The translations under genes and the position numbers were made by a program. A stretch of 64,000 nucleotides of DNA from assembly GCA_949316235.1 (NCBI GenBank), contig OX438747.1, forward strand, positions 29,578,618 through 29,642,617. The letters run 5' to 3'. The notes beneath the pieces are model-generated. The model had not been told where the DNA came from, did no database searches, and was given only the letters and a program-made list of their open reading frames with translations. Positions 5,795 to 56,565 of the stretch are shown one piece after another (positions within the stretch are counted from its first letter, which is position 1; each line of letters begins with the position of its first letter). The DNA comes from Oegoconia quadripuncta. Lineage: Eukaryota > Arthropoda > Insecta > Lepidoptera > Autostichidae.

Positions 5795-6720
5795 CCAACG
5801 TTAATGAATTATGATCATGTACGAGAATCTGCGTTTCGCGTTCAGCTAAAATGGCTCCCCATCCGACTTCGGCGTAACGTGCACATCCTCTCCTTCATAT
5901 ATAACACGCTAAAAAATCCCGCTGCCCCTGATTTATCTGCGTTCCCGCTTTTCCTTACTCCCCCCCTCCTGATATTCCTAGGCGATCTTGCATTAGTCCA
6001 GTTAAGATATGCATATTTAGGTGTGTAACTTCCTATAATCATAAAGGCTCTGATTTTTTGTACATAGACAGAGTACCTATCAGTGATATTGTAAAAAATA
6101 TTTTCTAACGGATCAGGAGTTTGCTTTAGGTATAATGTAGGTATTTAGTTATAAAACCTACAATATTAAATTAAAGTTACCACTGTGCACTTGTTGTAGA
6201 AGTAGGTAAGACGTTCTAAAACTATTTTCTAAAAAAATAATCAATATTTTCTAAAAATAGTTTATTGAATCGTGATATTTGCCCTCGGTGAAATGTTTCA
6301 TAATTGTAAAGAAGTTATTGCTCGATTTTTTTTTAAATACTTACAGGGGTTCTAAGTATATTCTCCGACGCAATGTAATTCACAGAGGTAATTTTAATCA
6401 TATAGTCTATGTTTTATTACTAAATATGTATATTATAACTAAAGCAAGCTACCGATTTGTTAGACTTTTTTGTAATTCTATCACTGACAGGTACTCCATC
6501 CATGTGCAAAAAATCACGGCCTTTAAAATTATAGCAAGTTAAAAATGTATACTTACTGGACTACATCACTAAAACGCTTGCTTGTCCTAGAGGCACCACA
6601 AACTTCCTTTATCACTCCTTCAGTGTTCAAGCAGCTATGATGTGGAATAAACTGCCAAAATTAATTCAGGGCAGCCCTTCAATTGCAGTATTTAAGAAGA
6701 TAGATAGATAATTTGTTTAT
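5795..6720 (+). mobile_element. CR1-like LINE C-terminal fragment split by a MITE
   Basis: Part 1 (5795-6045) reads ESAFRVQLKWLPIRLRRNVH, ILSFIYNTLKNPAAPDLSAF; part 2 (6531-6720) reads PRGTTNFLYHSFSVQAAMMW and NKLPKLIQGSPSIAVFKK. MITE family 2 (6046-6530) sits between them. Confidence 0.75.
6046..6530. mobile_element. MITE family 2, inserted in a LINE fragment
   Basis: Inverted ends of about 55 bp: AAAGGCTCTGATTTTTTGTA on the left, and on the right the complement of TAAAGGCCGTGATTTTTTGC, each followed inward by GTACCTRTCAGTGAT. It splits a CR1/Jockey-like LINE 3' fragment, whose halves are at 5795-6045 and 6531-6720. A second copy at about 47030-47972 is itself interrupted by a composite retroposon. 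Confidence 0.7.
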
Positions 6721-21022: not shown

Positions 21023-22068
21023 TGTTCAATACAAAATAGAACATTAACGTAATAATTAAATAACAGTTATTGTTAACTAGTTTTTGTATACAAGTGGCAA
21101 CACTGCTACATTTTGAAGTTCTCTTCCATCGTTGCGTTCGTTGAGCACGGACGGATTTGTGAAAGTTATCATTATTCCCTAAATTAAAAGAAATACAGTC
21201 TTCTAAAATTCATTCGCATGTTTTATTTTGTACATGCGAATTGTGGTCCTTCGAGCCGGATCATAGAAAACTCCTGTAATCTGTGGCCCGGCCCAACTTA
21301 TGTTCAATACAAAATAGAACATTAACGTAATAATTAAATAACAGTTATTGTTAACTAGTTTTTGTATACAAGTGGCAACACTGCTACATTTTGAAGTTCT
21401 CTTCCATCGTTGCGTTCGTTGAGCACGGACGGATTTGTGAAAGTTATCATTATTCCCTAAATTAAAAGAAATACAGTCTTCTAAAATTCATTCGCATGTT
21501 TTATTTTGTACATGCGAATTGTGGTCCTTCGAGCCGGATCATAGAAAACTCCTGTAATCTGTGGCCCGGCCCAACTTATGTTCAATACAAAATAGAACAT
21601 TAACGTAATAATTAAATAACAGTTATTGTTAACTAGTTTTTGTATACAAGTGGCAACACTGCTACATTTTGAAGTTCTCTTCCATCGTTGCGTTCGTTGA
21701 GCACGGACGGATTTGTGAAAGTTATCATTATTCCCTAAATTAAAAGAAATACAGTCTTCTAAAATTCATTCGCATGTTTTATTTTGTACATGCGAATTGT
21801 GGTCCTTCGAGCCGGATCATAGAAAACTCCTGTAATCTGTGGCCCGGCCCAACTTATGTTCAATACAAAATAGAACATTAACGTAATAATTAAATAACAG
21901 TTATTGTTAACTAGTTTTTGTATACAAGTGGCAACACTGCTACATTTTGAAGTTCTCTTCCATCGTTGCGTTCGTTGAGCACGGACGGATTTGTGAAAGT
22001 TATCATTATTCCCTAAATTAAAAGAAATACAGTCTTCTAAAATTCATTCGCATGTTTTATTTTGTACA
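21023..22068 (+). mobile_element. Tandem array of four identical LTRs (LTR-leader-LTR-leader-LTR-leader-LTR)
   Basis: Four 212-bp units start TGTTCAATACAAAATAGAAC and end TTTTATTTTGTACA (21023-21234, 21301-21512, 21579-21790, 21857-22068). Three identical 66-bp spacers, beginning TGCGAATTGTGGTCCTTCGA, separate them; period 278. The units have TG...CA ends and the array is flanked by TATAT on both sides. The spacer resembles the leader just inside the 5' LTR of insect LTR elements (BEL/Pao-like, recalled). No gag-pol and no polypurine tract. Copies look identical, so the array is young. Confidence 0.85.
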
Positions 22069-33824: not shown

Positions 33825-34852
33825 TAATAAATAAATAAATATTTGGGACACTTACACCAATCATCTAGTCCCAAACTTAGCAAAGCTTTGACAATGGATA
33901 CTAGGTAACAATGCTTGTACTATGGATAGAAAGTTGTATATAATATGTGTATATTTCAAATTTCAAGCTTTTATTTCAATGTACGATACGATATATAATA
34001 AATAAATAAATATTTGGGACACTTACACCAATCATCTAGTCCCAAACTTAGCAAAGCTTGAACAATGGATACTAGGTAACACTGCATGTACTATGGATAG
34101 AAAGTTGTATATAATATGTGTATATTTCAAATTTCAAGCTTTTATTTCAATGTACGATACGATATATAATAAATAAATAAATATTTGGGACACTTACACC
34201 AATCATCTAGTCCCAAACTTAGCAAAGCTTGGACAATGGATACTAGGTAACACTGCATGTACTATGGATAGAAAGTTGTATATAATATGTGTATATTTCA
34301 AATTTCAAGCTTTTATTTCAATGTACGATACGATATATAATAAATAAATAAATATTTGGGACACTTACACCAATCATCTAGTCCCAAACTTAGCAAAGCT
34401 TGGACAATGGATACTAGGTAACACTGCATGTACTATGGATAGAAAGTTGTATATAATATGTGTATATTTCAAATTTCAAGCTTTTATTTCAATGTACGAT
34501 ACGATATATAATAAATAAATAAATATTTGGGACGCTTACACCAATCATCTAGTCCCAAACTTAGCAAAGCTTGGACAATGGATACTAGGTAACACTGCAT
34601 GTACTATGGATAGAAAGTTGTATATAATATGTGTATATTTCAAATTTCAAGCTTTTATTTCAATGTACGATACGATATATAATAAATAAATAAATATTTG
34701 GGACACTTACACCAATCATCTAGTCCCAAACTTAGCAAAGCTTGGACAATGGATACTAGGTAACAATGCTTGTACTATGGATAGAAAGTTGTATATAATA
34801 TGTGTATATTTCAAATTTCAAGCTTTTATTTCAATGTACGATACGATATCAT
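33825..34852 (+). repeat. 171-bp tandem array built on a SINE tail, intron 4
   Basis: Six units, with ATTTGGGACRCTTACACC at 33841, 34012, 34183, 34354, 34525 and 34696, exactly 171 bp apart. About half of each unit is the reversed 3' tail of SINE family A (CACCAATCATCTAGTCCCAAAC); the rest is GAAAGTTGTATATAATATGT and TTTCAAGCTTTTATTTCAAT. Units differ at only a few positions. Confidence 0.93.
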
Positions 34853-42895: not shown

Positions 42896-43019
42896 ATGGA
42901 TCTAACTGTGGCGCCGTACGCTTACGGAGCGCATCCTTTTTATCGTATGACACCATATTTAAGTCCTCTTATTTACCCAAGCCCAACGGAATATCTGAAT
43001 TACTACAAATTGTATGATG
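42896..43019 (+). CDS. cnc: cnc alternative first coding exon (short isoform)
   Basis: An ATG at 42896 opens 41 codons beginning MDLTVAPYAYGAHPFYRMTP and ending NYYKLYDG, stopped by a strong donor G|GTGAGT at 43020. It carries one base out, the same phase that exon 5 gives to exon 6, so it can splice directly to 49516. The peptide is Tyr/Pro-rich and does not look like transposon protein. It sits in the middle of the largest repeat-poor stretch in the window, with a perfect TATCGATA site 215 bp upstream. The resulting isoform would lack exons 2-5, including QRWQDL and SILNDEDL, but keep the CNC-bZIP region. This fits the general pattern of short Cnc isoforms, but which Drosophila isoform it matches cannot be told from sequence. 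Confidence 0.75.
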
Positions 43020-44532
43020 GTGAGTTTTATGTGTGACTAACTCGATAACTTTGTTTTGTCGTTAACGTTATTTTTATTATTGGACTGATTGGGATTTCCC
43101 GCGTTTTGTTCTTTATTGATTTATTAGGTAGATCGGCATTATCGGGAAATTAATCTATTACATTTAAGTATTTATTACCTACCTATAATGAAACTATAAT
43201 ACTTGTATAATGCCCTAATTAATGTACACGTGACATATAAAAGCAAACACTTGAACATTTGAGCCCAAACTCCATTTTTTTTTCTAGCTGTAATAATGGC
43301 TGAAATCGCGACAGCTGATGACAGGTATATCTTGGAAAAGATACCGATTTCATCACATGGCTAACAACAGTCAAATATTAGCTTTTAAACAGGAAGGAAC
43401 TTGCATTGAAATCCATTTATTCCGATCTAGAGCTGATAATTCATCAAATGGGTGAGGTGTACCGTTTCACGCGTCAGGGGTTGAACAGATAACAATGTCA
43501 TACGATTTTTGTAACGTATCTATTATGGGTTATCAGAATTCTTATAATCCAGATTAGACTAGCGTATTTGTCATCGTGACATTGTAGGAAAGTCAAAGAC
43601 AAATGTCATGCTTTTGGTAACGTTATTTTTCCCGTAGGTATGTTATCGTTATCGCGATATCGACAATGTGATAAACGCTACAACTCTATCGATTATGGTG
43701 TGTATTTATAAACTTCTCTGATTAAAAAAAAGAACCTGCGTCATTATTGCCGTTACGTTGTTTAGCTTGTCTATAATGTCTTGAATTCTTTTAATGCTGC
43801 TATGGTTGTAAAGATGTGCTGAGAACATCTTAAAAAACGGATCATGTGATGCCTCTAGTAAAGTCTAATAATAAATTTAAATGATTTTAAAACAATCATA
43901 CTTAACACCGTCTATTGGAGTTTCGGAGTATCTCAGTATGTTCGTCGGTAGCTGTAGATGGGTGGTTTATGATAGTGTACTTTTTCAAAATTATTATGTA
44001 AAATGTTGTTAATCTATAATAAGTTTTCAGTTTTGAATGTATTGTCATTTCTAAGATAGGGCCTTAACAAAAATTCTCCAAAGTAACAGTCTCCAAAGGT
44101 AATATAGCTAGTCGTGTTAAATTAATTGAGTAGTGCCCCTTTTACACGTACGGAGATCATTCCAAATTAAAAAAAAAGATTGATTTAAACAGTCAGTTCT
44201 CATGTCATGTTTGGGATTATGTGTGAGTTCACTTCCACCTTCCTTATCTTCTTCATTTAACATTATGTGTTAGTAATATTTACCTGCGACTTCGCTCACA
44301 TCTCGCGAGAACTACTCTCTTTATCGGGATGAAAAGTATCCGTCTGACAGAGATATGCTTATTTCTAATAGATTTAAATTGATTATCAACAAATGAAATC
44401 ATATAAGTTACGTTGAAATAAATGTTTGAAGTTTGTAGATTCTAGATTCTACCCGAAATACGAAATTTCAACGAAATTCATCCGTTTCGAAGTTATATTA
44501 TTTTATAACATTCGTATATAAATACGAGAGCA

Positions 44533-46489: not shown

Positions 46490-47029
46490 AAACACTATTT
46501 GTTTCATCACAAAAGATTCTTTCGCTGAACCCCTAACTGTATGCATTTATTTTCTTACAATTTTTCACAAAAAAATCTGCCATACTTTTTGGATGGACTA
46601 ATATTACAGCCGGTATACTTTAATATAATTGGACGAACTCGTGCATAAATAAATACAACCAATTGTCACTTGAGTGTGAATTGTCGCGTAATTTGTTAGA
46701 ATCCAAGATCAAATTGAATATCTATCAAGTAAATATTGGAAAGTCCGTGTAAATCACCTCTACGGTTTAATAGAGTTGATCTCTCTTTGGCTCTGTTAGT
46801 TCTCTTTTGCGATGCTCGTTCTCTAGAATGTTTGCTATTAAAACGCATATTTTGAATTTAGGGTCTTCCGCTCTCTCTCATTCAGCACTAGTAGTAGCAT
46901 GACAGTCGCGCGAGACAAAAATATAACTATCCCATTCTCACTCTTACGTCGCGCGCGACAAACGATGTCATGCTACTAATCCAGTAAAAAAATACATAAT
47001 TTTTGTGATCTAACTTCTTTAACTTACAT

Positions 47030-47972
47030 CTTAACGTTTCCTGATATTTTTTTTGTAGAAGTATAGATAACCCATCAGTGATAGCATAAAAATGTTTTCT
47101 AACCATTCTATAGCTTGATTTAGGTTTAGTATAGGTATTTAGTTATAAATAATAATAATAATATAAATAAATATTTCGGACACCAATCATCTAGTCCCAA
47201 ACTAAGCAAAGCTTGTACTATGGATACTAGATAACGGATAAACATACATAAATATTTATATAAACATCCAAGACGCGTATTCATCATACAAACATTTACT
47301 CCTCGCGGGATTCGAACCCGCAACCGTTGGTTTCGCTGATAGGGTGACTATCCACTACACCAAACGGTCGTCATTATAAATAATGTATTACTCGTTAAAT
47401 TAGATAGCATATAAGTGAATGGTTTTGATAATGAAACTCGATAATTCTTGTCACTATAAGTACCTGTAGTAGTGCGTGACTTGAGTGTGCTGTGTTGAGG
47501 TCCAGTTTCGCTGATAGGGTGACTATCCACTACACCAATCGGTCGTCGATATATCGGTTATAGTTATAACACAAACAATATTAAAGTTGTCATTGTGCAC
47601 TTCATTGCGTTGTGGAACATGCCGAGATCTCCTAAAACATTAATTAATGGCTACTTTATTTTTTCTAAAAATAATTTATTGGGTCGTGATATTCGCCCTC
47701 GGTGAAATATTTAAAGAAGTTATTAATCGATTTTCTTGACAATGGTTACAGGAATTCTAAGTATATTCTCCGATTTAATGAAATTCACAGTGTTAATTTC
47801 AATCTTATATTCTATGTTTTTTATAACTAAATATCTATATTATATCTAAAGCAGGCTACCGATTTGATAGAATTTTTTTATATTCCATCGCTGACAGGTA
47901 CTCTGTCCATATACATAAAATCACGGCCTTTAAAATTATAGGATGTTAAAGGTGTATCCTTAGTGGACTACA
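47030..47972. mobile_element. MITE family 2 copy, interrupted by the exon-10 composite retroposon
   Basis: Sequence from about 47030 to 47148 and from 47561 to 47972 matches 6046-6530 in order, including GGTATTTAGTTATAA at the break, ATATTCGCCCTCGGTGAAAT and the right end AAAATCACGGCCTTTAAAAT. The foreign 47149-47560 segment lies between duplicated TAGTTATAA. Confidence 0.75.
47149..47560 (-). mobile_element. Composite SINE retroposon carrying an inverted copy of cnc exon 10 and intron sequence
   Basis: Read on the minus strand: a SINE family A head (47547-47504, GACGACCGATTGGTGTAGTG... to the GCGAAA position), then CTGGACCTCAACACAGCACA... identical to the last ~43 nt of exon 10 (54768-54810), the donor GTACTT, about 90 bp of intron 10 with a few differences, and then a full SINE family A (47372-47163) with an A/T-rich tail. 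The whole is flanked by the exact 9-bp duplication TAGTTATAA (47140-47148 and 47561-47569). The SINE in the copy shares private variants (GACCGTTTGG, TGTATGATG) with the SINE downstream of exon 10 (54902), so exon piece, intron and SINE moved together. Confidence 0.9.
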
Positions 47973-54709: not shown

Positions 54710-54810
54710 TGGAGTTTGGAGCTCGGCATCAATTGCCGCCCCCACACGTGCCAGCCCTGCAGCCGGCTCTGGACCTCAACACAGCACACTCAAGTCACGC
54801 ACTACTACAG
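54710..54810 (+). CDS. cnc: cnc exon 10 (also copied, inverted, in an upstream intron)
   Basis: Acceptor TTCCAG ends at 54709, donor CAG|GTACTT at 54811. Encodes VEFGARHQLPPPHVPALQP and then ALDLNTAHSSHALLQ; one base in, phase 0 out. Linker sequence. The last 43 nt of this exon, its donor and about 90 bp of the following intron reappear on the minus strand at about 47373-47503, fused to SINE sequence, so short reads or hybridisation probes from here will map twice. Residues about 277-310. Confidence 0.88.
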
Positions 54811-54901: not shown

Positions 54902-55144
54902 GACGACCGTTTGGTGTAGTGGATAGTGACCCTGTCAGCGAAACCAACGGTTGCGGGTTCGAATCCCGCGAGGGGTAAATGTTTGTATGATGAATACGAA
55001 CATTTATTCCCGAATCTTGGATGTTTATATAAATATTTATGTATGTTTATCCGTTATCTAGTATCCATAGCACAAGCTTTGCTTAGTTTGGGACTAGATG
55101 ATTGGTGCAAGTGTCCGAAATATTTATTTATTTATTTATTTTTA
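54902..55144 (+). mobile_element. SINE family A, source of the exon-10 composite
   Basis: Full copy 91 bp after the exon 10 donor. The variants GACCGTTTGG and TGTATGATGAATACG are shared only with the SINE inside the inverted composite at 47163-47372. Confidence 0.85.
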
Positions 55145-55984
55145 TGTATGTTATTATTTAAAATATACACCATGCCTCTTTTTGTCACTTTTCTGTCACA
55201 ACTGGTGCAGTTTTTCACGACACAATTCGGCATTTGATGCAATCGAAATAGATATGTGGCTGATTTCACATTCCTAATTCATTGGTGACATTTGTTCACT
55301 GTTTCAACGACCTGTTCCATTCGCATTAATATATTGTGACCTTCCCAACCCGCCTATGCCCACCTGGGTCAAGTCACGAGGTGTATATGTACAGAAGGGG
55401 CGGGACAGCTCGGCCAGAGTCAAAACAGAACACGGATCACCACACCAACTTATTTATTGCATGAAACAAATCGTACAGAGGATCGAAAGGGGCTTAAAAC
55501 TAAAAAATTAACTATTGAGATGTAAAAAAATGATTAGAATAACGTTGCGTCTGAGTTGAAATCTCGAAATCAATGTGCCAAAAAAAAAGGATCCGTCAGT
55601 TCATCAGTCAGTCAGTCAGTTTAAAATTTCGAATTTGAACTCCAATAACCCAAACCCACCAATGAGTATCAGCTCAAACGAACGACGCCGTTACAATATA
55701 AGCCTATAATGAATACACTTCTAATATATATATGTCTATGATCAAAACACTTGTAATATATATGTAAGTCAATGACCAACACTTGTAAATTAAACACTTG
55801 TTGGTGTTACAGTCTTAATCAGGGGTTAGCCTCAATTGAGTTGACCTTAATCATACCTGATATTCAGTGATGAGGCCGAGGTTGGAAACGAGTTCACCCG
55901 GACGCCCAACCTTGAGAGACTGGCGATCTTATCTGAAACAACCGGAACACAACAATCAACACGCTGTCAACTGCTATGTAGTGT

Positions 55985-56345: not shown

Positions 56346-56429
56346 TGTATTGTATGAAGAAATCTTTATTTATCTAATTGAAACACCCTGTTACGGTTCT
56401 TATTCGTATGCTAATTTTTGATTCCCCAG

Positions 56430-56565
56430 AGCGGCATACCGAGCCCGGCGTCGAACCCGGTTCGTTACGCCTACGCTACGCCGGAGAGAGTCCGCCACAA
56501 CCACACTTACAGTTCCCCGCTGGCCGGGGTCGAACAACGGCCGGCAGCCGTCAGGGACAAACGAG
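56430..56565 (+). CDS. cnc: cnc exon 11, HNHTY exon
   Basis: Acceptor CCCCAG ends at 56429. Encodes SGIPSPASNPVRYAYATPER followed by VRHNHTYSSPLAGVEQ and RPAAVRDKR. The HNHTY pentapeptide is a CNC family mark shortly before the CNC domain. Phase 0 in, one base out. The donor GAG|GTTCGT is weak at +3 and +4; the next GT-type candidate (GTAACG near 56581) is in the wrong phase for exon 12, so the weak donor is the one that fits. Residues about 311-355. Confidence 0.9.

What the first reader, a model, noticed from the sequence alone, without database searches (positions are those of the whole stretch)
47140..47569. Inverted partial copy of cnc exon 10, its donor and intron, moved as a SINE-chimeric retroposon into the intron before exon 6
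Minus strand 47503-47373 reproduces the last ~43 nt of exon 10 exactly, the donor GTACTT and ~90 bp of intron 10 with about four differences, followed by the same SINE A that follows exon 10 at 54902 (shared private variants). A SINE A head is joined upstream of the exon piece, and the unit is bounded by the exact 9-bp duplication TAGTTATAA inside a MITE whose intact relative is at 6046-6530. This is best read as reverse transcription primed at the SINE tail of a cnc-derived RNA, with a template jump to a second SINE RNA. The gene's pre-mRNA then carries, about 7 kb apart, about 370 nt of complementary sequence bracketing exons 6-10. That could favour a circular RNA, exon skipping, A-to-I editing or antisense pairing at the exon 10 donor.
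Basis: partly seen in the sequence, partly recalled or inferred. Interest (0 to 1): 0.88.

Follow-up and report, generated by a model that had tools for sequence, protein, structure and literature searches.

The report
Young SINE carrying nearby cnc exon-intron piece
A recently inserted short mobile element in a moth-type gene carries an antisense copy of the end of one of that gene's exons, its splice site and part of an intron, apparently picked up from 7 kb away by a copying slip; it looks real and is unusual, but no effect on the gene is shown.

Summary
The feature is there. Minus strand 47505-47373 repeats the last 42 nt of cnc exon 10 exactly, the GTACTT donor and 91 nt of intron 10 with four substitutions, inside a retroposon flanked by a 9-bp duplication in a MITE. 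The genome search found only these two places for the exon/intron piece.

The SINE after the cnc piece differs from the SINE following exon 10 at positions 27, 33 and 113 and carries C27, the state I used to define a young subfamily; so does the upstream head. Only position 9 is source-like. Best reading: a young SINE insertion whose 5' part switched into the older SINE's head, ran through intron 10 into exon 10, and returned to a SINE head at position 43.

Of five intervening pieces traced genome-wide among 14 pattern-matched loci, three have one other near-full-length copy, each nearby in cis (7.3, 10.4, 31 kb); two are dispersed repeats. Local capture fits best; template (RNA or DNA) and timing are open. 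Function is untested; the duplex would cover the exon 10 donor itself.

The parts
47140..47148 (+). Left copy of 9-bp target-site duplication TAGTTATAA
   Evidence: Read directly
47149..47346 (-). Body and (ATT)n tail of a young-type SINE (SINE position 27 to tail), with a 14-nt deletion and a 6-nt deletion
   Evidence: C27 and differences from the source at 27, 33, 113; the 14-nt-deletion junction occurs once in the genome
47347..47363 (-). 17-nt stretch (SINE positions 10-26) identical in source SINE and young SINE: the first switch lies here
   Evidence: Position 9 is source-like, position 27 young-type
47364..47372 (-). First 9 nt of SINE head derived from the source SINE in intron 10
   Evidence: T at position 9 shared with the source; A in 23 of 23 young copies
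47373..47463 (-). Copy of 91 nt of intron 10 with donor GTACTT, 4 substitutions
   Evidence: Alignment
47464..47505 (-). Exact copy of last 42 nt of cnc exon 10 (first C shared with the SINE head)
   Evidence: Alignment; genome search finds source and copy only
47505..47547 (-). Young-type SINE head, positions 1-43, joined to the exon 10 piece
   Evidence: 43 of 43 identical to the young consensus
47548..47560 (-). 13 extra nt between SINE 5' end and target duplication
   Evidence: Read directly; not shared with the other 5' flanks printed
47561..47569 (+). Right copy of TAGTTATAA
   Evidence: Read directly
46968..47967 (+). MITE that received the insertion (approximate aligned limits, spanning the insertion)
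   Evidence: Joined flanks align to 5986-6560; inverted ends 47049-47172 / 47796-47920
54710..54810 (+). cnc exon 10 (source; last 42 nt copied)
   Evidence: In-frame splice of exons 6-10; S. exigua protein P0001
54811..54901 (+). Source part of intron 10
54902..55150 (+). Source SINE, older type (G27, G33)

Best explanation
A young tRNA-type SINE inserted antisense into a MITE in the cnc intron before exon 6, by target-primed reverse transcription. Its 5' part then switched templates twice. The growing copy left the young SINE within positions 10-26 for the matching head of an older SINE 7.3 kb away in the same gene. It ran on through 91 nt of intron 10 and 42 nt of exon 10, and returned to a young SINE head at position 43. 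Shown: the order of the pieces, their closest matches, the breakpoint intervals, the target duplication, and one other copy of the gene piece, nearby. Inferred: target-primed reverse transcription, and that the switching took place during integration. One comparable locus (L033) has its local piece next to an intact SINE 5' end and, by eye, inside a 5-bp duplication. The local template could be nascent cnc pre-mRNA or DNA. The insertion is most likely neutral; its antisense exon-donor copy could at most hinder the exon 10 donor.
For: Inside the copy the SINE goes from source-like (position 9) to unlike the source (27, 33, 113), with C27, which defines the young group; the upstream head matches the young consensus at 43 of 43. 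Duplication, tail and empty-site relative. Two genome places for the exon/intron piece. Two other loci from the pattern search have one other near-full-length copy of their piece 10.4 kb and 31 kb away. In L039 the captured piece is again the 5' flank of a SINE, and the variant GACTCTGGCGACG is shared with it. L036 and L041 look like direct SINE-SINE fusions, as template jumps would give.
Against: The young group was defined by C27, so '23 of 23 young, 0 of 12 older' is by construction. A33 also occurs in 8 of 12 older copies and G113 in 10 of 12, so those two sites tell the copy from the source but not young from old. Upstream only one site (T9) speaks for the source, and 1 of 12 older copies has T9 too. 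L033's source piece does not adjoin a SINE on that side, so the three local cases differ in detail. L039 has no convincing target duplication. L034 and L037 gave dispersed repeats, not local sources. L073 showed no copy in its 3.2-kb locus or the fetched stretches C10:590001-599000 and 601001-610000, and was not traced genome-wide.
Confidence: 0.6

Rival explanations
1. Two-step DNA event: a plain young SINE inserted first; later a break or stalled fork in its head was repaired using the inverted older SINE 7.3 kb away, copying its 5' flank, and rejoined (break-induced or microhomology-mediated template switch).
For: The source is local and inverted; the first switch lies in 17 nt of identity, the second junction has about 1 nt; local sources also at 10.4 and 31 kb. 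Unspliced intron needs no RNA.
Against: Young-type states occur on both sides of the captured piece over SINE positions 27-43, which a blunt break does not give without a staggered break or back-jump. In L033 the local piece abuts an intact SINE 5' end and, by eye, lies inside a TAGTG duplication, which points to capture during integration.
Confidence: 0.25
2. One reading: reverse transcription primed at the tail of the exon-10 SINE within a cnc RNA, then one jump to a SINE RNA.
For: Order head-exon-intron-SINE, tail and target duplication; one shared SINE state, T9. Over the SINE body the copy is as close to the source as to n20764 (4 of 154 substitutions each).
Against: The copy and the source differ at positions 27, 33, 113, and the copy has C27 as does the upstream head; needs later conversion, or several changes in the source.
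Confidence: 0.1
3. Assembly artefact joining source and SINE sequences.
For: One assembly only; no reads available.
Against: Four private intron substitutions, a 14-nt-deletion junction found once in the genome, exact target duplication and MITE empty-site match.
Confidence: 0.03

Closest known systems
LINE-mediated chimeric retroposons by RNA template switching, including tripartite ones (PMC2104539; abstract and sections 8 and 9 read)
   Same: Pieces of different templates fused directly, SINE involved, flanked by a target duplication, two switches
   Different: Here the middle piece is an unspliced exon-intron fragment of the host gene from 7.3 kb away; the first switch lies in homologous sequence, whereas that paper found no homology between templates around its fungal chimerization sites
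LINE-1 chimeras with mRNA sequence, called 5' transductions (PMC13174262; abstract and section 13 read)
   Same: Gene sequence upstream of a retroelement inside one target duplication
   Different: There 15 of 17 map to the beginning of transcripts and six end exactly at splice donors, pointing to spliced RNAs; here the donor is unspliced and a second SINE head lies upstream
Lepidopteran tRNA-derived SINEs, PxSE type (PMC8010984; abstract and section 5 read)
   Same: Length about 250, tRNA-like 5' part, A/T-rich repeat tail as in several families of its Table 1
HaSE3, 5S-tRNA SINE chimera in Helicoverpa (PMC3272025; passages read)
   Same: Template switching invoked to join two RNAs in a moth SINE
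   Different: A propagating family, not a one-off gene capture

Membership tests
LINE-mediated chimeric retroposon | Flanking target-site duplication | tested here: met
   TAGTTATAA 47140-47148 and 47561-47569
LINE-mediated chimeric retroposon | 3' repeat tail of the mobilised element | tested here: met
   (ATT)n tail next to the left duplication
LINE-mediated chimeric retroposon | Fused copies of distinct templates | tested here: met
   Young-type SINE, older source SINE head plus cnc piece, young-type SINE head
LINE-mediated chimeric retroposon | Middle template was RNA | tested here: inconclusive
   Sense to the gene and unspliced; a DNA template is equally compatible
cnc processed retrocopy | Introns removed | tested here: not met
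   Donor and 91 nt of intron 10 retained
   Differs at positions 27, 33, 73, 112, 113, 170 plus two deletions; agrees at position 9
circRNA-promoting intronic repeat pair | Complementary arms in the introns flanking the circle | tested here: inconclusive
   Arms exist but one covers 42 nt of exon 10 and its donor
circRNA-promoting intronic repeat pair | Back-spliced reads | not testable with these tools
   No RNA-seq available
tRNA-derived SINE | Internal RNA polymerase III A and B boxes | tested here: inconclusive
   A- and B-box-like motifs are visible in the head, but the motif forms are recalled, not from a call; no Rfam match at gathering threshold in the window

The most novel reading that the evidence does not exclude
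During SINE integration in this genome, the growing copy recurrently switches to sequence lying within tens of kilobases of the landing site, such as the target gene's own nascent transcript, and can switch back. Retroposition would thereby write antisense copies of a gene's own exon ends and splice sites into its introns.
Probability: 0.35. Interest if true: 0.72.

Novelty: new variant of a known kind. Interest (0 to 1): 0.5.

Why it matters
In the papers I read, chimeric retroposons are explained by jumps between RNAs, without a stated link to the landing site. The three cases traced here that have a single other near-full-length copy all have it within 31 kb in cis (of five traced; the other two are dispersed repeats). 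If that holds more widely it ties template choice to the landing site and makes a nascent-RNA or local-DNA switch testable. It also shows one way in which a gene could gain an antisense copy of its own splice site.

Tried and rejected
Rejected: SINE body derived from the exon-10 SINE. Not like cases after tracing: L034 (piece is a dispersed repeat end; 40 of 439 candidates scored) and L037 (dispersed repeat fragments; 40 of 66 candidates scored). L072's piece resembles dispersed repeats, and 73 nt of L073's piece match L052 at 88%. L035, L036, L040, L041, L071, L074 and L075 were looked at only in their own loci. Considered: a mutation-rate contrast between captured intron and young SINE parts (4 of 92 against 1 of 220, hand-entered counts, Fisher p 0.028; 4 of 134 against 1 of 220, p 0.07). 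It is too small to use, and the alignment gives 91 intron nt. A tile control within the window (63 of 492 tiles with a second copy) mostly reflects repeats and tandem arrays, so it does not calibrate the local-source result. Rfam scan at gathering threshold: no matches. No interspecies or population test was possible. The N{110,139} pattern and the young-subfamily count did not complete.

Full report
Observation. The alignments confirm the exon 10 end, donor, intron stretch, upstream SINE head, 9-bp duplication and MITE target. A Spodoptera exigua protein (P0001) matches the exon 9-10 join and the exon 10 end PALDLNTAHSSHALLQ, and finds a further exon at 56421-56564. Two downstream frames match Pfam bZIP_Maf. 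The N-terminal part of P0001 matches 42896-43030 (60%), so the insertion lies between that likely exon and exon 6.

Which SINE is it? I aligned 31 near-full-length SINE hits from L003-L030 and four window copies with the source, the copy and the copy's head. L003-L030 were fetched as best matches to the copy, so they are a biased sample, and partial hits were dropped. I called young the 23 copies with C at position 27 and older the 12 without it; that split is by definition. Nine of the 23 are identical to their consensus over 223 nt. The source SINE in intron 10 has T9, G27, G33 and A113. The SINE after the cnc piece has T9 but C27, A33 and G113; A33 is also found in 8 of 12 older copies and G113 in 10 of 12. 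The head joined upstream of the cnc piece matches the young consensus at 43 of 43 positions. Two further states of the copy (C112, T170) occur together in L022, the only exact genome match to a 69-nt pattern holding both. Over the SINE body, substitutions alone do not place the copy: 4 of 154 against the source and 4 of 154 against n20764. On the site evidence one switch lies within positions 10-26 and the other at position 43, with about one shared base.

Is it unique? Exon 10 plus intron 10 up to the SINE gives two genome places. The copy's 14-nt-deletion junction is found once.

Are there similar loci? Two exact 15-nt SINE-head words occur 140-170 nt apart at 9 places (this one included) and 171-200 nt apart at 5 places; the reversed control pattern gave 0 both times. 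Genome-wide tracing of the intervening piece was done for 5 of these 14. The cnc piece (7,264 nt from its source, inverted), L033 (10,447 nt, inverted; 40 of 152 candidates scored) and L039 (31,130 nt, same strand; 7 of 7 scored) each show one other near-full-length copy, in cis. L034 and L037 gave dispersed repeats. Under uniform placement in 622.6 Mb, lying within 31 kb has a probability of about 1e-4 per case; the cnc case prompted the search, so only two cases are independent. In L039 the source is again the 5' flank of a SINE, with shared variants. In L033 no SINE adjoins the source on that side; the captured piece abuts the complete SINE 5' end. By eye the whole lies inside a TAGTG duplication within an older SINE (sequence), though BLAST matched only the first 26 nt of that older SINE. 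L036 and L041 look like direct SINE-SINE fusions. L073 (head 1-41, 168-nt piece, SINE from position 4) remains unresolved: nothing in its locus or in the two fetched 9-kb stretches.

Mechanism. These facts fit a young SINE insertion with a local out-and-back template switch. Capture during integration is preferred because in the cnc case, and by eye in L033, the captured piece lies inside the target duplication; but a later DNA repair event is not excluded. The local template could be nascent transcript or DNA: the cnc piece is sense and unspliced, which suits either.

Function. Arm pairing is strong (-587 kcal/mol; SINE parts alone -364, cnc piece alone -212) but not exceptional for the gene (45533/61755 pair -647). 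Because the arm includes the exon 10 donor, hindrance of that donor is more natural than an exon 6-10 circle; exon 10 is 101 nt, so skipping it would shift the frame. Reverse-complementary matches in flanking introns can promote both skipping and back-splicing in C. elegans (PMC8330042, abstract read). No RNA evidence exists here, and neutrality is the default.

Literature. Searches brought up chimeric retroposons with one or two template switches (PMC2104539; PMC13174262) and template switching invoked in moth SINEs (PMC3272025). In those listings and the sections I read, I saw no report of a SINE capturing its target gene's own nearby exon-intron junction; that is the extent of the search.

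Noticed in passing
L036, L041 (G000:C5:6034689 and C15:3620101): A 5' SINE part joined to a complete SINE without a tail between them, as expected for template jumps.
   Followed up: partly
47505; L040; L073; L039: Head breakpoints fall at position 43 (cnc copy, one L040 head), 41 (L073) and 66 (L039, other L040 head). The sample is too small to judge.
   Followed up: no
window 42896-43030: Match to the N-terminal part of S. exigua protein P0001, possibly the first exon of a short cnc isoform, upstream of the insertion.
   Followed up: partly
window 33826-34764: Tandem array of about 171-bp units, each containing a SINE fragment (positions about 151-234).
   Followed up: no
window about 21025-21993: Tandem array of 278-bp units; tiles identical between units.
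   Followed up: no
SINE positions 204-209 in the copy and in L018: The same 6-nt deletion occurs in the copy and in an older SINE, probably recurrent slippage.
   Followed up: no
47548-47560: Thirteen extra bases with a palindromic CGATATATCG at the 5' junction; origin unexplained.
   Followed up: no
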